Positions 42,563-63,871 of a stretch of 64,000 nt of DNA are shown piece by piece. The notes under the pieces were generated by a model, which had not been told where the DNA came from, searched no databases, and worked only from the letters and a program-made list of their open reading frames with translations. This DNA comes from a virus. How positions within the stretch are numbered: the stretch's first letter is position 1; each line of letters opens with the position of its first letter. The translations under genes were made by a program, and so were the position numbers. The stretch spans positions 1-64,000 of IMG/VR virus record IMGVR_UViG_3300038465_000068. The stretch is one strand, 5' to 3'.

Positions 42563-43567
42563 CTATTCCTGTTCGACCGGCTGACCGTCAGCGCCCAGCA
42601 CATACCAAACTTCCGGCTTGATGCCGTTCTGCCCGACAATGCCAGCCCACACATGAATAATCGGGCCGTTCCAAACTTCGTGATAGATCAGGAACAGCGC
42701 GCAGCCTTCTTTGCCCATTGCGCGGCCCCTGTAGCCCGTCGCGCTGGCTGCGCCACTGGTGCCCGTCGCGCTGGCTGCGCCCCTGTAGCCCGTCGCGCTG
42801 GCTGCGCCACTGGTGCCCGTCGCGCTGGCTGCGCCACTGGTGCCCGTCGCGCTGGCTGCGCCACTGTCGCCCGTCGCGCTGGCTGCGCCACTGGTGCCCG
42901 TCGCGCTGGCTGCGCCCCTGTAGCCCGTCGCGCTGGCTGCGCCACTGTCGCCCGTCGCGCTGGCTGCGCCCCTGTAGCCCGTCGCGCTGGCTGCGCCACT
43001 GTCGCCCGTCGCGCTGGCTGCGCCACTGTAGCCCGTCGCGCTGGCTGCGCCACTGGTGCCCGTCGCGCTGGCTGCGCCACTGTCGCTCGTCGCGCTGGCT
43101 GCGCCCCTGTAGCCCGTCGCGCTGGCTGCGCCACTGTAGCCCGTCGCGCTGGCTGCGCCACTGGTGCCAACGGCGTGTGAACTTGTGCCTTCCGGCTTTG
43201 CGCGATCAAAGACCCATTTGACCGCAGCGGCGATGATTTCCGGCAATTTGATTTCAGCCTCAATGGTGATCTTGCCGGATGCGATCTTGGTATCGCCTTC
43301 GTGGCGAGACAGTTCACCAGACTGGACTACGCGCGCAAAGCGGCTTTCCGCTGGCGCATAGTAATTGAAAATATCCAGCGGGTGTTCGCAAGCATGGAAG
43401 CCGCTTTCGCAGGCGACAACCGGACCTTCGTGGGTGTAAGAGCCGCCAATCTCAAACTTGAAGCCGCGACAGGAAAAATCCTTGTCGAAGCCCTTGTAGC
43501 TGATGACCTGTTCGCTGGCGCTTTCCAGCAACTTTGCCTTCTGGCTGCGGTTCGGGTGGTTAATCAT
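42563..43567 (-). CDS. DUF7666-type protein with 16 tandem 9-residue repeats
   Basis: A 334-residue protein. The N-terminal 125 residues (KGFDKDFSCRGFKFEIG, then CESGFHACEHPLDIFNYY) are the DUF7666 pattern of phage and plasmid proteins. Residues 136-279 are sixteen copies of a 9-residue unit reading S/R-GAASATG-Y/D/T. A 55-residue capping segment follows. The repeats probably form a beta-solenoid. An AGGAG site precedes the ATG. The role is unknown; exchange of repeat units could vary its length or surface. Confidence 0.75.
   Translation of the reverse strand: MINHPNRSQKAKLLESASEQVISYKGFDKDFSCRGFKFEIGGSYTHEGPVVACESGFHACEHPLDIFNYYAPAESRFARVVQSGELSRHEGDTKIASGKITIEAEIKLPEIIAAAVKWVFDRAKPEGTSSHAVGTSGAASATGYSGAASATGYRGAASATSDSGAASATGTSGAASATGYSGAASATGDSGAASATGYRGAASATGDSGAASATGYRGAASATGTSGAASATGDSGAASATGTSGAASATGTSGAASATGYRGAASATGTSGAASATGYRGRAMGKEGCALFLIYHEVWNGPIIHVWAGIVGQNGIKPEVWYVLGADGQPVEQE
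42731..43162 (-). repeat. Sixteen 27-bp tandem repeats
   Basis: Near-identical units of 27 bp within the DUF7666-type gene. They vary almost only in two codons: one for Tyr, Asp or Thr, and the next for Ser or Arg. Copies of each variant are scattered, as expected from recombination or slippage between units. Since 27 is a multiple of 3 and the unit lacks stops, both strands are open in several frames here. Confidence 0.95.
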
Positions 43568-50965: not shown

Positions 50966-51190
50966 CTGAGCCAGAAGTTGAGATACGCCTATTTGGACGA
51001 GGCCCCTGTCGTGTTCACGCTGAATGAGGCGTGGCATTTCGTCGGCGGGGAGTGGAAGTCGCTGCATCCGGCGGACGCGCACAGCAAGGCGCGGCTGCTA
51101 TCGAGGGCAGAGTTTGATGCCTATGCGGCCGCAGCCGGTGCCGGGAAGTTGCCCACCGCCGCTTTCCAGCCCGCCGACAGCGAGTCGTAG
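50966..51190 (+). CDS. Hypothetical protein with probable CTG start
   Basis: The frame has no ATG. An AGGAGG lies 6 bases before an in-frame CTG at 50966; the next in-frame start, TTG at 50978, is 18 bases away from it. The 74-residue product (YAYLDEAPVVFTLNEAWHF) resembles a short family of alphaproteobacterial phages. Its end overlaps the tail of the large leftward gene by 70 bp. Confidence 0.55.
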   Translation: MSQKLRYAYLDEAPVVFTLNEAWHFVGGEWKSLHPADAHSKARLLSRAEFDAYAAAAGAGKLPTAAFQPADSES

Positions 51191-54100
51191 GCCGGGCGAT
51201 ACACCGCCTGCTGGGCGGCGAACAATTCCGCAGCGCGCGGCGTCTTGGGATCAAGGCTTCGCCATTCCTTGTATAGATTATGCCCGCCGCCGCCCTTGGG
51301 GCTTTTCGCCTCGATCAGGGCAGGCGGTGCGATCAGCACCTCACCGATCTGGCCGTTCTTGAACTGGACGTTGACGGCGCGGTCGAAATATCCCTCGGCC
51401 TTCATCTTGTAGCCCTCGTCAGTTGCCGGGAATTTCTCGGCGAGCGCCTTGGCGACGGCATTGGCCTGTTCCAGCGTGTCGACGGCGAAGGTGCCGCGCA
51501 CGATGTCGGTCACACCAGCAGGCGCGCGACCGGCCGCCATCTTGCGCAGCGTGGCGTGAAAATCTTTCACCAGAACGCGGGGCATTTCCTTGACGCCTGC
51601 CGCGCGCCATTGCGTGCCGGTCTCGTCGGCGATCTTGCTGGCGGTCTCGTCCAGCGTCGCCTTGTTGGCCTCGGCTCCTGCATAGACTTGCTCGATGCTG
51701 TGGAGCGGGCTGTTCTTGATCCATATGTCCTTGACGTTGCGCGAGTCGAGCGGGCCCACACCCTTGTTGCCGGGATTGTTGAGGTGGTCGGCCATGCGCT
51801 CATAGGCGTCATCCTCGTCAAGGCTTTCGAGATACGTCGGGCCTTGGTGCGCGCCATCACCCCACGATTCTGATGAACCGGCGTTGTTGCCACCGCCGGT
51901 CCAGCGGCCATCCTCGTCACGCGGCTCGGTCTCGCTGTACTTGGCGAACTGCTTGGCGAAGGCGCGCGCCAGCATCTTGCGCAGGCCCTTCTCCTCGGCC
52001 CAGCCGTCGTTGATCGGCGCGTGCACCTCCGGCCCGAACACCAGCGGGAAAGCTGGCGGCGTGGTCCCGGTCAGGTCTTTGCCGCCGCTGTCATAGGACA
52101 GGGTGACGTGGGTGAGATATTGCGGCCAGTCGTGCGATGCGCCCGCCGCCATGGCTTCCTTGTGCCGGGCTTGCAGGTCATCGCTGTGGAAGTGCAGCAC
52201 GACCGCACCCTTGTCGCCCAGCCCCATGATACCGCGCCGACCGCCGACCGCCGACACGGTGTCATCGTTCGGCTCCAGCGCCACCGGCTTGCGGCTATAG
52301 ACCTGCGTGACGTGCATTTCGTGGGGCGGCACGAGATTTGGGATACCAGCGCGGGACGCCCATGCGTGCAGGCGCTCGGCATTGGCTAGTGGGCGATGGA
52401 CGTACAGGCTGTCTGGCACGGCCAGCTTGCGCACCGCAGCCAGCGCGCCGTCGAAGGTGATCGACTTGGTCATGTCCGGGTCGGTGGAGGAAAAACGGCC
52501 ATGCTCGTCATGGCTGGGGTTGAACTTCGCGACAGCGCCTAGCGCCTCGCCGAAGGTCAGCGCGCGCTTTTGCGCTTCAAGCTGGGAAGCCCACCGATCC
52601 CTAATCCCCCGCCATAGGTCTCCGGCGCTGCGTCCTTGATATTGGGATGGATCGGATGCAATGGCCGCTTCGTAAGCGGCGCGTCCTCGTGCCCGCTGGT
52701 CGGCGTCGGTTCCTGTCCCTTCGTGGTCTCCGATGAACTCTGCATGACCGGCGGTCCTTGTGGCGTCGACATTGTGGGCAGCGGCAAAATCACCGACAGC
52801 GTGCCCAAGGGAGCCGTCAGTGTCCACCACCAGAACGCGGGTGCCGGAGGTGCTGGGAACTAAGGTGTGGAACCCGATGCCTGCTTTCAAGAGGGCGGCA
52901 TGGGTTTCGGCAGGCTGGCCGGGCACCGTCAGGTCATACAGGGCGTGTGGCCCGTCCTGCGCCTTGTTGAACACAAGGACGGCCTTCTGGTTGGCGAGGT
53001 GGCCCTTCATCACCGTGGCCAGCCGCAAGGCTGCTGGGCTCGCTGTGTCGCTCTCCGTGAGGGTGGCGTTCTCTGCACCGTCCGACCATGCCCCGATCAC
53101 CCCGGCCTGCTGGCTGACCAGCCCCAGCCGGTTGTCGATGTCCCGGGACATTGCCTCAAAAACCTTCTGGCGCGGCCCGGACAGGTCGTGCACCGCGCCG
53201 CCGAAATCCTTGTCGTGGATGCTGGCGCTGGCGAACGCCATGCCTGTCCACTTCCCGTCCTCGTCGCGGGGCTGATCCGGGTCGAATTTCTCGATGTGCC
53301 CGTCCACCGGGATCACGATGTAGAACGTAAGCGGCGGCCCGACCTTGCCGAACAACAGCTTCTCGGCCTCCTTCGCTGACAGCGGCTTGATCCATTCCGG
53401 CTTAATCGGGCCAATGTGCCGCCACGCCGGATTTTCCCCAGTGAACGGATTGGGCTCAAACCTTTCGTCGGGTTTGACGTTGGGCGATTCCTCCGGCGGC
53501 AGGGTGACGCGCAGCAGCACAGGCTTCGTTCCGGTTTGCTCGGCCGCGTATTCGGCAAAGCGCGCTGCAACATCGGGGTACGGCGACATATAGACGGACA
53601 TCTTGCGGTCGCCTGCCATCATGGTCTCGCGGGGCATGCCGCGCTCAATTCCCCACTTGTCAGCACCTTCGCCCTTGTGCGGGATCAAGCCCTCTTTCTT
53701 GATCGCCGCCAGCGCAGCCTTCGCGGTGCCGTGATAGAACGTGCCGCCGCCAGCCCAGCGCCCATGGTCATCCCGCTCCTCGTCGGGGTTGAACTTGCGC
53801 ACGGCCGCCAGCGCAGTAGCGAAGTCCATGGCAGGCGTCGGGCTGGGCGGCGGCTTTGACAGCCAGTGCGGCAGCTTGTGCGCCATTTCCATTTCCAGCA
53901 CGTCGATATTCAATTTGCCGCCGCTCTCCCACACGCCGCCATCAGCCTTGGTGATCGGCGAACTTTTGAAGTCCGGCGCGGCATCCTTCCATGCGTCCCA
54001 CTTCTGCCAAGCCGTGCCCATCACCACAATCTCGCGCTCGCTCTGCACATTCTGGCCATAGACCGGGACGGACAGGATCGCGGTGCGCGGCACGCTGGCG

Positions 54101-56325
54101 CGCAGCACAACGCGGGTTTCATTGTCCGGGTGGAAGCCGACGCCACCCCAGCCGTTTGCCACGCTGCGGGTCGCTGTGGTGGACATCGCGCCGTTTCGCA
54201 TGACGTTGATCTCGGGCAGCTTGGTGAAGCCATCGACCCGGACCTTCGGTGTCGCAGCAATGTCTTTGCCAGACAGCATGACGCCGCGATAGACCTGCAC
54301 CACCGGCTTGTCGGCCTTGGCGAGGAGATACTGGGTGGTCTCCCACTTCGCGCGGACATAAGCCTTCACGCCGTCATAGCCGCCGACGTTGGCAAAGATG
54401 GAGTTGGCGTCGCTCTTGATCGAGTTGAGGTCATCGGTGTCGAAGTGCGCGACGTTCAACCGGCCGCCCATTTCCTCGGCGGCGGCGACTTGCAGGATGC
54501 GGCCGTTGGTGCCGCTCGACGATTCCTTCCAGCCGCCCCAGACCTTTTCGTCGGTGTTTTTGATGTCCTGCATCGTCGGCTCGTCATCGCTGGCCGACCC
54601 TGACAGCGCGATCTTTTTGATCCCGCGCGCGCGCATCAGTTCCTTCGTCCGGCTCTGCGACAGCGCCTCGGCGAGGTCATGGGTGCGGCTGTAATCCTCG
54701 GAGTCGACGCTGCCGTCCTCGCTGTCACCGCTGGATGATGTCAGATATTCGTCGGACAGATTGTTCTGGGCGAACTTGTATTTATCGTCGTCGTCCGTGC
54801 TGTCCCAGCTTTCTTGAATCGAGGACTTGGCGGCATCGGCAAGATAGTCTGGCGGGTCCATGTTACCGGCGCGCTTGTCGCGCTCGATGGCGAAGGCGTC
54901 TCTGATCTTGGTGTCGAGACCTTCGCGCATTTCCTGCGTCAGGCGGTCCTGCGGCTTCTCCGGCTCGACGCCAACAAAGTTCGGATCGGGGTCAAAGCCT
55001 TCCGGGCTGTCGAGGGAACTGCCGCCGAACTCCACGCCACTATGCTTGTCGAGCCTGTCGCCACTGGTATTGAGCGTGATGGCGTCGTCCAGTTGCTCGA
55101 CCGTGAACGGGATTTTCTTTTCGCCATCCTCCTCGCGGTCATCGAAGTGCTCTTGGATCGCATCGCGCAACCACTGGCGGCCCTTGTCGCCGCCGGTTTC
55201 GTTGTCGGCGATGTCGGTGGCCGCGTCCTCTGGCGCTTGGTTCTCGCGCCACTGGTTTTCCTGATAGTCCACCTCCTGCTGGAGATTGTTTTCGAGGTAC
55301 GCCTCCTCGGCCTTCGTCTGCGCATCACCTGTCAGGCCATCCCAGTCCGTCGCCTTGCCATCGCTATCGCCAACAGCGTCGCCGATGGGCTCGACGTGCT
55401 CCGGCATGTCGACGTGCAGCGTTTCCTTGCTGGGAAAGAACTCTGGAAATCGCTGGTCGACCTGCGCAAATTTCATGTCGTCAGAAAATGCGTCAAAGTG
55501 CACCCCAGCCTTCAACTCTGCCGCATCGGTGAAGTCTGGAACTTTCATGTTGAACACATTCTCGGCAGCGGCATGGTCAAAGGCGATTTTCGCCGCGCTC
55601 GCCAACGCAATGCGGTCATGCGGGTCCATGCCAGGATAGGCGTTAGGATCGAGTGTGATGTTGCCGGAAGTGTCGACCGATAGCGCGCTGCCGAGCGTTT
55701 TATAATCCGCCAGTTGTATATTGTTGCCGTTCGTAACAGTCAGCATATTCGCCCCGCCGCTGGACATGCCGGTGCCACCACCACGCGCAGCAGTCAGCGC
55801 GCGCATTTTCCAGTCATCAATCTGAAATTCTGCTCCCGGTACTACGCCTTGGAGCGTCTGCATCCTCGGGTTTTTCACGAGATCGGCGATAGCAACAGCC
55901 TTGCCTGGGCCGCGCTGCCAGTCGGCGTTCATTTGATATTGAAAGTCGGTTATGTTGCGGGCGATGTAGTTAATGCGGACAGCCGCCTTTTGCGGCGCGG
56001 TCAAATCGCCAAAACCTTTCGGGTCTTTGCTGAAATCGGCGGGTGCGGTAAGCCGCGCGGTCAGCTTTTCGAGGTCAGGTTTCACGCCCTGAAACTGGCG
56101 CTCCATGCGGACAGCGGCGTTCTTGTTCCACTCGTCGCCGCCGACGTCGGTGACGCGGGCATCCAGCGCAGGCTCGCCACCAAGGCCGGTGGCCGCCGCC
56201 ACGGCAGCACCGCCTGCGCCGCCGCCGCTGGCAAATTCGCCGCCCTGCGACGTCCCAGCAGGCTCGTGGTTCGGGTTATACTTGTGGAGAAGGGACGCGG
56301 CGGCCATGGCCTCGTCGAATGTCAT
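51121..56325 (-). CDS. Polyvalent protein: two ADP-ribosyltransferase-like domains, Acb1-like 2H phosphoesterase, RelA/SpoT-like domain
   Basis: About 1,734 residues from the ATG at 56325 (GTG at 56334 is an alternative; numbering below counts from it). Six copies of a short linker (ALAAVRKFNPD, then RDEHGRW) separate domains. Residues 650-775 are an R-S-E ADP-ribosyltransferase (YRG with Arg683, STT 718-720, E-x-E at 766-768). Residues 865-995 are a second, H-Y-type one (YHGT, VYMS). Residues 1035-1215 are an unknown domain. Residues 1304-1445 carry two HxT motifs (1341-1343 and 1409-1411) and match Acb1-like 2H phosphoesterases. Residues 1550-1695 resemble RelA/SpoT synthetases. Such multidomain phage proteins are known as polyvalent proteins and may be injected with the DNA to neutralise host defences. 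Injection is inferred. Confidence 0.85.
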   Translation of the reverse strand: MTFDEAMAAASLLHKYNPNHEPAGTSQGGEFASGGGAGGAAVAAATGLGGEPALDARVTDVGGDEWNKNAAVRMERQFQGVKPDLEKLTARLTAPADFSKDPKGFGDLTAPQKAAVRINYIARNITDFQYQMNADWQRGPGKAVAIADLVKNPRMQTLQGVVPGAEFQIDDWKMRALTAARGGGTGMSSGGANMLTVTNGNNIQLADYKTLGSALSVDTSGNITLDPNAYPGMDPHDRIALASAAKIAFDHAAAENVFNMKVPDFTDAAELKAGVHFDAFSDDMKFAQVDQRFPEFFPSKETLHVDMPEHVEPIGDAVGDSDGKATDWDGLTGDAQTKAEEAYLENNLQQEVDYQENQWRENQAPEDAATDIADNETGGDKGRQWLRDAIQEHFDDREEDGEKKIPFTVEQLDDAITLNTSGDRLDKHSGVEFGGSSLDSPEGFDPDPNFVGVEPEKPQDRLTQEMREGLDTKIRDAFAIERDKRAGNMDPPDYLADAAKSSIQESWDSTDDDDKYKFAQNNLSDEYLTSSSGDSEDGSVDSEDYSRTHDLAEALSQSRTKELMRARGIKKIALSGSASDDEPTMQDIKNTDEKVWGGWKESSSGTNGRILQVAAAEEMGGRLNVAHFDTDDLNSIKSDANSIFANVGGYDGVKAYVRAKWETTQYLLAKADKPVVQVYRGVMLSGKDIAATPKVRVDGFTKLPEINVMRNGAMSTTATRSVANGWGGVGFHPDNETRVVLRASVPRTAILSVPVYGQNVQSEREIVVMGTAWQKWDAWKDAAPDFKSSPITKADGGVWESGGKLNIDVLEMEMAHKLPHWLSKPPPSPTPAMDFATALAAVRKFNPDEERDDHGRWAGGGTFYHGTAKAALAAIKKEGLIPHKGEGADKWGIERGMPRETMMAGDRKMSVYMSPYPDVAARFAEYAAEQTGTKPVLLRVTLPPEESPNVKPDERFEPNPFTGENPAWRHIGPIKPEWIKPLSAKEAEKLLFGKVGPPLTFYIVIPVDGHIEKFDPDQPRDEDGKWTGMAFASASIHDKDFGGAVHDLSGPRQKVFEAMSRDIDNRLGLVSQQAGVIGAWSDGAENATLTESDTASPAALRLATVMKGHLANQKAVLVFNKAQDGPHALYDLTVPGQPAETHAALLKAGIGFHTLVPSTSGTRVLVVDTDGSLGHAVGDFAAAHNVDATRTAGHAEFIGDHEGTGTDADQRARGRAAYEAAIASDPSQYQGRSAGDLWRGIRDRWASQLEAQKRALTFGEALGAVAKFNPSHDEHGRFSSTDPDMTKSITFDGALAAVRKLAVPDSLYVHRPLANAERLHAWASRAGIPNLVPPHEMHVTQVYSRKPVALEPNDDTVSAVGGRRGIMGLGDKGAVVLHFHSDDLQARHKEAMAAGASHDWPQYLTHVTLSYDSGGKDLTGTTPPAFPLVFGPEVHAPINDGWAEEKGLRKMLARAFAKQFAKYSETEPRDEDGRWTGGGNNAGSSESWGDGAHQGPTYLESLDEDDAYERMADHLNNPGNKGVGPLDSRNVKDIWIKNSPLHSIEQVYAGAEANKATLDETASKIADETGTQWRAAGVKEMPRVLVKDFHATLRKMAAGRAPAGVTDIVRGTFAVDTLEQANAVAKALAEKFPATDEGYKMKAEGYFDRAVNVQFKNGQIGEVLIAPPALIEAKSPKGGGGHNLYKEWRSLDPKTPRAAELFAAQQAVYRPAYDSLSAGWKAAVGNFPAPAAAA

Positions 56326-56349
56326 CGCCCCCACCGCTAGTCTCCCCCC

Positions 56350-59523: not shown

Positions 59524-59587
59524 TGGTGTCCCGCTCTGGAAAGTGATGCGGACAATCTGGCCTGATTTGGCTGGCCGAGCAAGTGGT

Positions 59588-59656
59588 GGACGGGCCGAGG
59601 AGTCGAACCTCGTTTCCCCGCGCCGATGGCGTGGGGCGCGTCCCGCCGCGCCCGCC
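59588..59656 (-). tRNA. tRNA-like element B, uncertain
   Basis: A perfect T-arm (CGAGG, loop TTCGACT, CCTCG) and a 7-bp acceptor (GGCGGGC with GCCCGTC, one G-U) are followed by C and an encoded ACCA. The D-loop is only 5 bases, the anticodon stem has a mismatch, and position 33 is not U. It may be a degenerate tRNA or the tRNA-like end of a longer RNA. It is not a normal tRNA by eye. Confidence 0.35.
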
Positions 59657-59880
59657 TTGAATTTCTGGTGCGGCGAACTTCGCCATTTCCACCCTGCGCG
59701 CGCTTCCGGCCGGATCATGCGCAAAGGCCCGCCTTGCGGCTGGCACCACCTCGTTGGTGGGCGCTCGACCATCTGCGCCTCCTCCGGTTTCCCGGCACCT
59801 GTTTGCCGCCTTCACGCAGCGGGTCTAAATCGGCGACACCAAACTGAAATAGTTGGCGGCTTTCTGTTGCCCGGAGGCCG
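59657..59880 (-). ncRNA. Structured non-coding segment downstream of tmRNA
   Basis: No credible gene lies here. Several hairpins can be read: CCACC-AACGA-GGTGG, GCC-GCAA-GGC, GGCGAA-G-TTCGCC. It links the tmRNA coding piece to tRNA-like element B. It may be processed RNA spacer or a separate structured RNA. Confidence 0.35.
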
Positions 59881-60155
59881 CCTGCACCGCGCATCAACGC
59901 CGTTAGGCGGCGATGCGGACTTCTTCGTTGTCGTTGACCTTTACGGTCCTGCTCGCCTTGGCTTGCGCCGTTTCGATCCGTATCCAGCCGTCGATCCTGT
60001 TTCGCCCCCGTGCGCCGCGCATAGGCATCGAACCTATCTCCCTGCCCAGCATGGCGGGGCCGCCTCACCTTGAGGCTTGTTCGCGGCTTGGTGGAGGCGG
60101 CGGGCATCGCATCCCGCGTCCGGTCAAGTCGTAATCGAAAACATCAGCTTGCAGT
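59881..60155 (-). ncRNA. ssrA: Two-piece, circularly permuted tmRNA
   Basis: The acceptor piece comes first (about 60155 to 60089) and ends in encoded A-CCA. The coding piece starts at 60009 with GGGGGCG. Its acceptor strand pairs with CGCCTCC (60093-60099), with a G-U at the third pair, the alanine identity element. GGATCGACGG follows as the conserved tmRNA box. The tag is at 59903-59938 and reads VNDNEEVRIAA, then a stop. The order (acceptor upstream of coding) is that of alphaproteobacterial permuted tmRNA. The T-loop of the acceptor piece is odd (8 bases). tmRNA rescues stalled ribosomes and tags the nascent protein for ClpXP-type proteolysis. The 3' edge is approximate. Confidence 0.8.
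60013..60087 (-). tRNA. tRNA-like element A within the tmRNA intervening segment
   Basis: This 75-base segment fills nearly the whole gap between the tmRNA pieces. It has a perfect T-arm (ATAGG, loop TTCGATG, CCTAT), a 6 of 7 bp acceptor (GCCGCGA with GCGCGGC) and a D-arm with GG in the loop. The anticodon loop would read GCCATGC, with CAT as anticodon, but position 33 is C, and no CCA follows. It is therefore tRNA-like rather than a proven tRNA. Confidence 0.4.
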
Positions 60156-60161
60156 TCGTGA

Positions 60162-60190
60162 GATATAGGACCGGATGGCCTATGCGTCAA
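60162..60190 (-). promoter_or_regulatory. Operator-promoter of the tmRNA (site 12)
   Basis: -35 TTGACG (60185-60190) and -10 TATATC (60162-60167), 17 bases apart, with AGGCC-ATCCG-GTCCT (60167-60181) in the spacer. The transcript would start near 60155, at the 5' end of the acceptor piece. It puts the tmRNA in the same regulon as the other operator genes. Confidence 0.8.
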
Positions 60191-60218
60191 TACCGAGGCT
60201 GGCGCGTTATACGCGGGT

Positions 60219-61247: not shown

Positions 61248-62390
61248 TTATGACTGCTTTTGCTTCTCCCGCGCAATAGCGGCCTCGCGGTCGGTGATCT
61301 CCTCGTGCTGAATATCGTCGTCGTCGCCGATGTCATCCTCCTCCTCTTGGTCGATATAGGTGATGCAGCGGCAGTTCGGGTGCAGCGGCGGCGCGAGGAT
61401 GGGGCCAAAAGGCGTTTGGAAATAGCCGTCTAGCATGACGCCATCCGGGTTCATGTCGGGCACTTGCTCGCAGTATTCGCACAGCCTGTCGTCCGGCGTC
61501 ACCAGCCAGTAGCGCCGCGTGTCCTGCCCAGCCAGCAGGCCGTTATCCACAGCCTGTCGCCACGCAAGCTGCATCGCCGTGTTGGAGGCACGCATGGTCT
61601 CGGTGCGGGAGATTGTCTCGGCTCGATCCCTAATGGTGTTGTTGCGGTAGCGGTTGACCATGGTGGTGATCTGTTCGTCGGTCAGTTCGCGGTCGGCGTT
61701 GGGGCCAAGCGCGCGGTTGAGCGTCGGATCATGGCGGCGGTCGCGCCGAGCCCGGGTCAGCGCCGTGCGGTCCTTGTTCCGCAGCATGCGCTCGAAATTG
61801 TCCACAGCCGCAGCTTGGTTCTCGGTCAGGCCGAGGCTTTCGCGGATTTTGCGCGCTTGCTCATAGGGATGGCCGCCCATCTTGAAGGCGTCCTCGATCA
61901 CCCGGCGGATACCGTCGCGGGTGTCCTGCGAAACCTGTTGGATCAGGCCAAAGTCGTAATTGCGCAAGAATGTTGCGGCGTGGGGGTTTGTCAGGTTGAA
62001 GGACATACCAGCGCGCACGCCCAGAGTCCGTGCCGTGGTCTTGCGCCCGGCTTGGATAAACACGTCCTCCAGCGGCGTGGTCAGGCCCGGCTTGAGCGCA
62101 TCGGTCAGTTCGGCCTCGACGCCCAGCGCGCGCATCGCGCCAGCCACGTCGCCGCGCTCGATGGCGTCGCGCAGCATTTCCTCTTTGATGGTGTTGCGCA
62201 CGCGGCGCAGCGCCTCAAGGAAGGCAGCGGCAACGGTCGGCCCGGCCTTGTCGGCGATGGCCAGCAGCCAGTCTGGGTCCGGCGGCGGGGGTGGACCGTC
62301 CGCCTTGCTGATCGGCCGGTTCCAAGTTTGCCGGAGCGGCGCTGTCCCCAGCAGGCGTTGCCGGTGCTTACAGGCGCTAGGGACGATCAC
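61248..62390 (-). CDS. MuF-like minor head protein
   Basis: A 380-residue protein started by a GTG overlapping the portal stop. The C-terminal region (RYWLVTPDDRLCEYCEQ near residue 300, then HPNCRC about 340) is the Cys/His signature of the phage Mu gpF family, which is attached inside the head and needed for head completion. The end is acidic. Confidence 0.88.
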   Translation of the reverse strand: MIVPSACKHRQRLLGTAPLRQTWNRPISKADGPPPPPDPDWLLAIADKAGPTVAAAFLEALRRVRNTIKEEMLRDAIERGDVAGAMRALGVEAELTDALKPGLTTPLEDVFIQAGRKTTARTLGVRAGMSFNLTNPHAATFLRNYDFGLIQQVSQDTRDGIRRVIEDAFKMGGHPYEQARKIRESLGLTENQAAAVDNFERMLRNKDRTALTRARRDRRHDPTLNRALGPNADRELTDEQITTMVNRYRNNTIRDRAETISRTETMRASNTAMQLAWRQAVDNGLLAGQDTRRYWLVTPDDRLCEYCEQVPDMNPDGVMLDGYFQTPFGPILAPPLHPNCRCITYIDQEEEDDIGDDDDIQHEEITDREAAIAREKQKQS

Positions 62391-63871
62391 AGAGGCTTGC
62401 GCCTCCGGCGCTTGCCGACCGTGCCGCCCGCCGTGGAACCGCCGCCACCGCCTGCGGCTGTGCCACCAGAGGCCGGTTTCGCCCCGGGCATGCCGGGAGG
62501 CAGCTTTTCCTTGGCCTTGATCTCGGCCTCTTGGTTCTGCTGGTCCTGTTCCTGCCCGTCTGACACAGCGGTCGGATTGTCGGCGGCTGGCAGGCCAGCC
62601 TCCTCGCGCAGGTGGGCCTCCAGCGTATCGTCGGGAACCAGCGCGCCAGCGGTGGCGATGTCGGTGATGTACTGGCCAAGCTGCATCAGGTCCGACTTGG
62701 CGATGTCGCCGTGCGTGACCGTGACCTGCCCCTTCATGGCGTTGAGGCGCAGCAGTTCCGTCGCGCCGCGCTGGACCTCGCTGCTGATGATGTCGAGGTA
62801 GCCGATCACCGCGTTGTTGAACATTTCGGTCTTGTTCTGGGATTGCGCGCCGTGCCCGCCCATCCCGCCGCCACCGCCGTGCTGCTGACCCAGTGTGATG
62901 AAGTCGGCCATCATGCAGGCCGTCATGCCGTGGTCATAGCGTCCGATAATCTCGGTGGTGGCGAACTGGCGGCGGCCGCCGGTCGCCAGCAACTCGACCT
63001 TGAAAATGAGGTTCTTGTTGGCGTCATAGATCGCCGGGACGATCATGCCGCTTTGCTCGTTGTTGTTGACGAGATTGACCATTTCCTTGACGTAGGCCAG
63101 CGCGGCCTTGTCGTCCTCGCTGGCGTCTTTCTTGAACCACGCGGACGGCACCGTCACCACCGGCATGCCGCAGAGGTCGCGGCTCACGCCGATGGCCTCG
63201 ATCTGCTGCACGCGCTTTTTCAGATAATAATACTCGTACATCGACCGCAGGATGCTTCGGCCTTCCGGGTTGTTCTTGTACGGCGTGGTGCGGAAATGCA
63301 GGCACTTCGACAGCGGCACGTTCAACAGCGGGCCGCCGGTCGGCAATAGCTGCACCATGGAGATCGGATCGCCGTTTGGCTGAAACGTCCAGTGCAGCAG
63401 CGTCTCTTGCGCGCGCCCGGCGAACTTGCGCCAGCCCAGCTTGCCATCGGTGTACTGGGATCGCTGCGACGGGTCATCACCATCCGGCCCGCGCCGATAT
63501 TTGTAGACCACCTCGTAAACGCCAAAGCCGTATTGCAGGAACGACAGCGCGTCGGCCATGAAGTCGGCCCAGCTATGCTCCATGTCGGCAAAGCAGCTTT
63601 GAACGAAATCGGCGGCGTCCTCGTCCTCCTGCTTGCCATCGGTGACGGCCTTGACCCGGAACGGCACCGGGCGCAGCAGCATTTCGACAGCCATCAGGAT
63701 CGCGGAAATGATCGGGTCGTTGTCCCGCATTTCGCGCAGCATGAGCATGCCGCGACGGCCGATAAGGCTGCGCAGCCACTCCTCGCGGACATAGCCCGAG
63801 AATTGGCGCAGGCCGGTCGCGCCGAACTCCAGCACCGCGTCGCCGACTCCATACGGTTTCTTGCTGGCCAT
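62387..63871 (-). CDS. Portal protein, DUF935-like
   Basis: A 494-residue protein. MREMRDNDPIISAILMAVEMLL-type helices near residue 45, FLQYGFGVYEVVYKYR near 110 and HFRTTPYKNNPEGRSIL about 190 are the portal family pattern (DUF935/gp29-like). The C-terminus is Pro/Gly-rich. It forms the dodecameric DNA channel at the head vertex. It is followed directly by the MuF gene. Confidence 0.85.
   Translation of the reverse strand: MASKKPYGVGDAVLEFGATGLRQFSGYVREEWLRSLIGRRGMLMLREMRDNDPIISAILMAVEMLLRPVPFRVKAVTDGKQEDEDAADFVQSCFADMEHSWADFMADALSFLQYGFGVYEVVYKYRRGPDGDDPSQRSQYTDGKLGWRKFAGRAQETLLHWTFQPNGDPISMVQLLPTGGPLLNVPLSKCLHFRTTPYKNNPEGRSILRSMYEYYYLKKRVQQIEAIGVSRDLCGMPVVTVPSAWFKKDASEDDKAALAYVKEMVNLVNNNEQSGMIVPAIYDANKNLIFKVELLATGGRRQFATTEIIGRYDHGMTACMMADFITLGQQHGGGGGMGGHGAQSQNKTEMFNNAVIGYLDIISSEVQRGATELLRLNAMKGQVTVTHGDIAKSDLMQLGQYITDIATAGALVPDDTLEAHLREEAGLPAADNPTAVSDGQEQDQQNQEAEIKAKEKLPPGMPGAKPASGGTAAGGGGGSTAGGTVGKRRRRKPL

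What the first reader, a model, noticed from the sequence alone, without database searches (positions are those of the whole stretch)
59881..60155. Phage-encoded, permuted two-piece tmRNA with its own operator-promoter
Seen: a 5' G run of the coding piece pairs with the 3' acceptor strand (7 bp, G-U at pair 3), A-CCA is encoded, the tmRNA box GGATCGACGG is present, and a short tag ends at a stop (59903-59938). Known: alphaproteobacterial tmRNA is permuted and two-piece, and AlaRS uses the G-U pair. Inferred: the phage adds its own ribosome-rescue tag and can regulate it, because an operator-promoter lies just upstream. The valine-like resume codon and IAA tag end differ from usual host tags.
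Basis: partly seen in the sequence, partly recalled or inferred. Interest (0 to 1): 0.9.

Follow-up and report, generated by a model that had tools for sequence, protein, structure and literature searches.

The report
Phage-encoded two-piece tmRNA, valine resume codon
This bacterial virus carries its own complete copy of the split RNA that frees stuck ribosomes; such viral copies were already known, but this one begins its tag with valine instead of alanine, a change found here in several alphaproteobacterial phages and in none of 106 bacterial copies checked.

Summary
Window 59851-60194 (- strand) is a full-length match to Rfam alpha_tmRNA (74.7 bits, E 1.8e-18) and to tmRNA_permuted (70 bits). 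The gene lies inside a 67 kb virus record, between portal/head-morphogenesis genes and the rest of the structural module. Two related phages keep it in the same place. Their mature pieces are 93-96% identical to the window's, against 67-77% for neighbouring genes and 42% for the intervening sequence, so it is under strong selection and not a passenger. Phage two-piece tmRNAs are already known (Melnitz; one annotated in Lacusarx), so the object is not new in kind. Two features are unusual. (1) The resume codon is GUC (Val). I also found this in an Aureimonas prophage and in Erythrobacter, Mesorhizobium and phiCbK-like Caulobacter phages, but in 0 of 106 distinct bacterial alphaproteobacterial tmRNAs. 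(2) The intervening sequence is expanded (79 nt; phage median 93.5, bacterial 30.5) and here folds as a tRNA-like cloverleaf. The promoter is ordinary, and an IAA tag end also occurs in bacteria. Best reading: a functional phage-owned ribosome-rescue RNA that depends on host SmpB, AlaRS, RNase P and ClpXP. The benefit to the phage is inferred.

The parts
60162..60190 (-). promoter-like TTGACG-17-TATATC
   Evidence: TTGACG-17-TATCTC at the same place in relatives L130/L131; inside the RF01849 match; not picked by a strict E. coli-type scan
60089..60154 (-). tmRNA acceptor piece (tRNA-like 3' half: T-arm, 3' acceptor strand, encoded A-CCA); 5' end approximate
   Evidence: RF01849 and RF04321 alignments; 95.5% identical to relative
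60010..60088 (-). intervening sequence removed on maturation (79 nt)
   Evidence: between CCA and coding 5' end; 42% identical (gaps counted) to the 119-nt one of the relative
60014..60087 (-). tRNA-like cloverleaf within the intervening sequence (74 nt, T-arm AUAGG-UUCGAUG-CCUAU)
   Evidence: MFE cloverleaf; 5 of 1000 dinucleotide shuffles give one; best but sub-threshold Rfam match is tRNA-Sec, 17.1 bits
59903..60009 (-). tmRNA coding piece from 5' GGGGGCG to the tag stop codon
   Evidence: 93.5% identical to relative
59903..59938 (-). tag reading frame GUC...UAA = VNDNEEVRIAA*, resume codon Val
   Evidence: sequence; aligned with RF01849/RF04321 tag start and with relatives' VNDNEEVRLAA
59851..59902 (-). 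3' part of the coding piece with the conserved CCGGGCAACAGAA hairpin
   Evidence: RF01849 model positions to 355

Best explanation
It is a functional, phage-owned, permuted two-piece tmRNA. One transcript from an ordinary promoter is cut by the host's tRNA-processing enzymes into an acceptor piece and a coding piece, held together by the 7-bp acceptor stem (G3-U70) and by inter-piece pairing. Host alanyl-tRNA synthetase charges it, host SmpB and EF-Tu carry it to ribosomes stalled on broken mRNAs, and translation resumes at GUC, adding A-VNDNEEVRIAA with a ClpX-type hydrophobic end. During infection this most likely adds rescue capacity and a phage-specified tag while host mRNA is being broken down. 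In this genome the intervening sequence folds as a tRNA-like cloverleaf that starts 1 nt after CCA, so RNase P could cut there and release the mature 3' end. Shown: the anatomy, phage location, conservation and Val codon. Inferred: processing, charging, rescue, tagging and benefit.
For: Full-length covariance matches. It is the only tmRNA found in the 67 kb virus record and is flanked by terminase, portal and head-morphogenesis genes on one side and major head and tail genes on the other. Two relatives carry it in synteny. Mature pieces are 95.5/93.5% identical, against 76.9% portal nt, 66.8% and 72.3% for the two flanking genes, and 42% for the IVS. No smpB in the phage, so host SmpB is needed. 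The Aureimonas genome shows that a prophage tmRNA with GUC coexists with a separate chromosomal tmRNA. GUC as a resume codon is reported as functional in E. coli tmRNA (cited in PMC2862035).
Against: No expression, processing or tagging data. The T-loop is 8 nt (AUGCGAUG) in the window against 7 nt (GGCGGUG) in the relative. The -1 base is G where most tmRNAs in the set have U. The cofold energy of the two pieces is not better than chance (45 of 300 shuffles as low), because the pieces are short, GC-rich and pseudoknotted. IVS cleavage at the cloverleaf is inference from one genome; the relative has no such cloverleaf.
Confidence: 0.82

Rival explanations
1. It is a decoy: it binds SmpB/AlaRS and competes with host tmRNA, lowering host tagging of phage proteins (as suggested for Lacusarx, and shown for the tag-less DS6A tRNA-like RNA when expressed in E. 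coli).
For: A tag-less phage tmRNA from DS6A inhibits endogenous tmRNA (PMC11915505; discussed in PMC4131195); Lacusarx authors propose counteracting host tagging (PMC5648845).
Against: A pure decoy needs no tag frame, yet resume region, tag codons and stop are conserved at 93.5% with a conservative I/L change in the tag.
Confidence: 0.1
2. It is a neutral passenger or attachment-site remnant captured from a host ssrA.
For: Host ssrA genes are common integration sites (PMC11915505); phage-carried ssrA fragments have been reported (PMC9004378).
Against: Complete gene with promoter, in the middle of the structural module, kept in synteny and far better conserved than its neighbours; a 20-base stretch spanning its resume codon is absent from 84,980 bacterial and archaeal genomes; phage and bacterial tmRNAs separate on the tree by a single change (weakly supported branch, 54).
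Confidence: 0.03
3. The tmRNA is real and functional, but the Val codon and cloverleaf IVS are neutral drift without functional meaning (compatible with the main explanation; it competes only with the novel reading).
For: H. pylori has GUA as resume codon, and GUC is functional in E. coli (PMC2862035). The IVS is discarded and unconserved between relatives. The tree needs only about 2-3 changes of state for Val, so it may be few events.
Against: GUC is kept across divergent phages of at least four host genera and in no sampled bacterial tmRNA.
Confidence: 0.45

Closest known systems
Alphaproteobacterial two-piece tmRNA (Caulobacter type, Rfam RF01849/RF04321)
   Same: Permuted order, two pieces, G3-U70 acceptor, encoded CCA, tmRNA box, tag ending in hydrophobic-AA, GGCAACAGAA element, matching promoter position
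   Different: Phage-borne; resume GUC instead of GCN; long structured IVS; T-loop 8 nt
Phage two-piece tmRNAs: Melnitz and pelagiphages (PMC9004378), Sphingobium phage Lacusarx (PMC5648845)
   Same: Permuted tmRNA inside an alphaproteobacterial-type phage genome
   Different: Melnitz is under a glutamine riboswitch; Lacusarx uses an Ala resume codon (GCC); neither paper discusses the IVS or the resume codon in the passages read
phiCbK-like Caulobacter phages, CcrColossus, Erythrobacter L02/XM05, Mesorhizobium Cp1R7A-A1, Aureimonas prophage
   Same: Permuted tmRNA with GUC resume codon and long IVS (found here)
   Different: Other tags (e.g. VAANDNDVVAFASAREAIAA) and other loci; most carry tRNA clusters; none of the isolate records fetched annotates the tmRNA
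Permuted tmRNA with a tRNA-Ala gene in its IVS (GCA-2688965, PMC11915505)
   Same: A tRNA-like structure inside the IVS
   Different: There an intact high-scoring tRNA; here a degenerate cloverleaf, in a phage
Helicobacter pylori tmRNA (resume GUA, Val)
   Same: Valine resume codon
   Different: One-piece, bacterial, unrelated lineage

Membership tests
alphaproteobacterial permuted two-piece tmRNA | covariance-model score over curated threshold, full length | tested here: met
   RF01849 74.7 bits (gathering 50), model 1-355; RF04321 70 bits (gathering 47), model 1-213
alphaproteobacterial permuted two-piece tmRNA | permuted order acceptor piece - IVS - coding piece | tested here: met
   60089-60154, 60010-60088, 59851-60009 on - strand
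alphaproteobacterial permuted two-piece tmRNA | alanine identity: G3-U70 in a 7-bp acceptor stem, encoded CCA | tested here: met
   GGGGGCG / CGCCUCC-A-CCA in the sequence and in the CM alignment
alphaproteobacterial permuted two-piece tmRNA | tag frame with stop and hydrophobic-Ala-Ala end | tested here: met
   VNDNEEVRIAA*; relative VNDNEEVRLAA*
alphaproteobacterial permuted two-piece tmRNA | alanine resume codon (usual in the group, not defining: H. pylori has Val) | tested here: not met
   GUC; all 106 distinct bacterial tmRNAs sampled have GCN
alphaproteobacterial permuted two-piece tmRNA | pieces held together by inter-piece helices beyond the acceptor stem | tested here: inconclusive
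   UUUUCGAU/AUCGAAA pairing in cofolds of both genomes, but energy not better than shuffles
alphaproteobacterial permuted two-piece tmRNA | processing into two RNAs, SmpB binding, alanylation, tagging | not testable with these tools
   needs infected-cell RNA, in vitro charging, proteomics
tRNA gene (IVS element 60014-60087) | passes tRNA models | tested here: not met
   ARAGORN none; best Rfam match tRNA-Sec 17.1 bits, gathering 47; called tRNA-like only
operator-controlled promoter | repeated or conserved palindromic operator upstream | tested here: not met
   single exact copy, near matches at chance level; no equivalent visible upstream in the relative

The most novel reading that the evidence does not exclude
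Alphaproteobacterial phage tmRNAs form an old lineage apart from their hosts' tmRNAs. In one group the resume codon was changed to GUC to give phage-specified tags a different fate (for example poorer recognition by host adaptors that read the AANDN start), and the discarded intervening sequence became a place where phages keep structured RNAs or small genes: the tRNA-like cloverleaf here, protein ORFs in marine phages.
Probability: 0.22. Interest if true: 0.75.

Novelty: new variant of a known kind. Interest (0 to 1): 0.5.

Why it matters
Why phages carry tmRNA is open: extra rescue, altered tagging, or sabotage of the host system. The comparison shows that permuted tmRNAs, most with a Val resume codon, sit unannotated in well-studied phages, including phiCbK of Caulobacter, where two-piece tmRNA and its proteolysis are best understood. 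That makes the question directly testable in a laboratory phage-host pair. It also shows that phage tmRNA genes differ systematically from host genes in the first tag residue and in the length of the intervening sequence.

Tried and rejected
Operator: no repeats or conservation. Whole region against isolated phages: no match at DNA level. A 14-mer from the downstream element over viral contigs gave mostly chance hits; longer patterns found only the two relatives and one third contig. Pattern TAANNGTCAACGACAAC over 385 alphaproteobacterial genomes gave one non-tmRNA hit, but its Ala control pattern also gave none, so it is uninformative and not used as evidence. Cofold energy as proof of inter-piece pairing: not significant. 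Attachment-site remnant: rejected on position, completeness and conservation. Host identification: not achieved beyond 'alphaproteobacterial type'; the record names no host.

Full report
What is there. On the - strand, 59851-60194 matches Rfam alpha_tmRNA over the whole model (74.7 bits, E 1.8e-18) and tmRNA_permuted (70 bits). The order is promoter-like TTGACG-17-TATATC (60162-60190), acceptor piece (60089-60154, encoded A-CCA), intervening sequence (60010-60088) and coding piece (59851-60009). The coding 5' end GGGGGCG pairs with CGCCUCC, with G-U at pair 3. The tag is VNDNEEVRIAA*. ARAGORN missed it.

It belongs to the phage. The window lies in a 67,052-base virus record in which this is the only tmRNA found. 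Terminase (record 63901-65715), portal (62387-63871) and head-morphogenesis (61248-62390) genes lie on one side, and the major head, tape-measure and tail-fibre genes on the other. Two related records (portal 74% identical) carry the same tmRNA between the same neighbours. The other 30 portal relatives searched lack it, many being short fragments.

It is under selection. Between the window and the relative, the acceptor piece is 95.5% identical and the coding piece to the stop 93.5%. Portal nucleotides are 76.9% identical, the two flanking genes 66.8% and 72.3%, and the intervening sequence 42% with gaps counted. The phage has no smpB, so it must use the host's.

Resume codon. The codon at the resume position is GUC (Val). 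Alignment to the models, and to phage genes reading GUAAAU|GCA|AACGAC against the window's GUAAAG|GUC|AACGAC, places it there. Among 106 distinct alphaproteobacterial chromosomal tmRNAs all resume codons are Ala (90 GCC, 12 GCA, 4 GCU). GUC is found in the window group, the Aureimonas Leaf427 prophage (that genome also has its own separate tmRNA), Erythrobacter phages vB_EliS-L02 and XM05, Caulobacter phages CcrColossus, phiCbK, Karma, Rogue, BL10 and RB23, and Mesorhizobium phage Cp1R7A-A1. For phiCbK, Karma, RB23 and Cp1R7A-A1 the Val start is ARAGORN's call (V-AANDN and similar); for Rogue and BL10 it is by analogy, and for XM05 by analogy with L02. With six such cases assigned by hand the script gives 10 GUC of 40 phage sequences against 0 of 106 (Fisher p about 1e-6). 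It mislabelled XM05 as Ala and left out RB23, so the count is conservative. The sequences are related, so the p-value only describes clustering. RcRudolph, RcSimone-Hastad, Lacusarx and the marine contigs keep Ala. H. pylori uses GUA, and GUC is functional in E. coli tmRNA (PMC2862035).

Origin. On a short alignment (148 columns) phage and bacterial tmRNAs fall on two sides of one branch (1 change against 35.5 in shuffles; branch support only 54). The phage gene is therefore probably not a recent host capture. The bacterial sample was chosen by an exact 22-base core and by top scores, and does not represent SAR11-like hosts, so this is suggestive only. A 20-base stretch across the resume region is absent from 84,980 genomes.

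Intervening sequence. Phage intervening sequences have a median of 93.5 nt (55-293), bacterial ones 30.5 nt (10-122) (same sampling caveat). Most phage ones form a long closing stem. The window's folds as a 74-nt cloverleaf with a canonical T-arm; only 5 of 1000 dinucleotide shuffles give a cloverleaf. No tRNA model accepts it, so it is tRNA-like only. One permuted tmRNA with an intact tRNA-Ala in its intervening sequence is published (PMC11915505). Because the cloverleaf starts one base after CCA, cutting by RNase P at its 5' end would nearly finish the acceptor piece; this is inference.

Known or new. Phage tmRNAs, including two-piece ones, are known: Melnitz and 53 predicted two-piece genes among 18,146 phage genomes (PMC9004378), and an annotated ssrA in Lacusarx (PMC5648845). 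The phiCbK paper reported no functional RNAs besides tRNAs (PMC3556154), yet tmRNA_permuted matches there at 71.4 bits. The 2022 survey may already count these phages; its tables could not be read. I found no paper that notes the phage GUC resume codon, within an open-access library only.

Verdict. A real, probably functional phage two-piece tmRNA, with an unusual but recurring valine resume codon and an expanded, here cloverleaf-shaped, intervening sequence. The operator claim is dropped.

Noticed in passing
window 59756-59839 (- strand); L130 ~1895-1975; L282 239-340: Conserved non-coding element just downstream of the tmRNA: invariant GTGTCGCCGATTTAGACC, a GNRA-capped stem whose sequence differs but still pairs, and hairpin GGYGC-AGATGGTCGA-GCRCC with a compensatory C-G to U-A change; a third, diverged copy lies upstream of terminase-like genes in an unrelated viral contig. 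No Rfam match.
   Followed up: partly
window 59584-59656 (- strand): Second tRNA-like cloverleaf followed by CCACCA (ARAGORN 'tRNA-Asp atc', 69 nt; 5-nt anticodon loop, odd D-loop); not found in the relatives.
   Followed up: partly
L085, L105, L095, L113, L119 (viral contigs): Marine phage permuted tmRNAs whose intervening sequence holds an ORF (45-97 aa); in L095, L113 and L119 the stop codon is the TAG of the tmRNA's own GGGGCGAAATAG. L085/L105 differ by 6 synonymous and 2 non-synonymous codons.
   Followed up: partly
L424-L427, L429 (Caulobacter phages phiCbK, Karma, Rogue, RB23, BL10), L423 (CcrColossus): Permuted tmRNAs over the gathering score (RF04321, 71-88 bits) not annotated in the records; the phiCbK-like group also has another conserved structured stretch (CTTTCGCAGGCGGGA...CTGTCGG...CGAAAG) downstream.
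   Followed up: partly
L421, L422 (Erythrobacter phages L02, XM05): An HslV-family peptidase / proteasome-subunit gene lies just downstream of the phage tmRNA, suggesting a phage-encoded tag-plus-protease pair.
   Followed up: no
L418 2425-2760: Rhodobacter phage RcRudolph 'hypothetical protein' RCRUDOLPH_61 is drawn over the tmRNA gene and is probably spurious.
   Followed up: yes
window 51121-56334 (- strand): 1737-aa protein with an anti-CBASS Acb1 domain at residues 1309-1447 (Pfam PF23474, E 1.7e-34).
   Followed up: partly
window 42563-43567 (- strand): 334-aa protein with a long run of SGAASATG-type 8-residue repeats (PHROG 4433).
   Followed up: no
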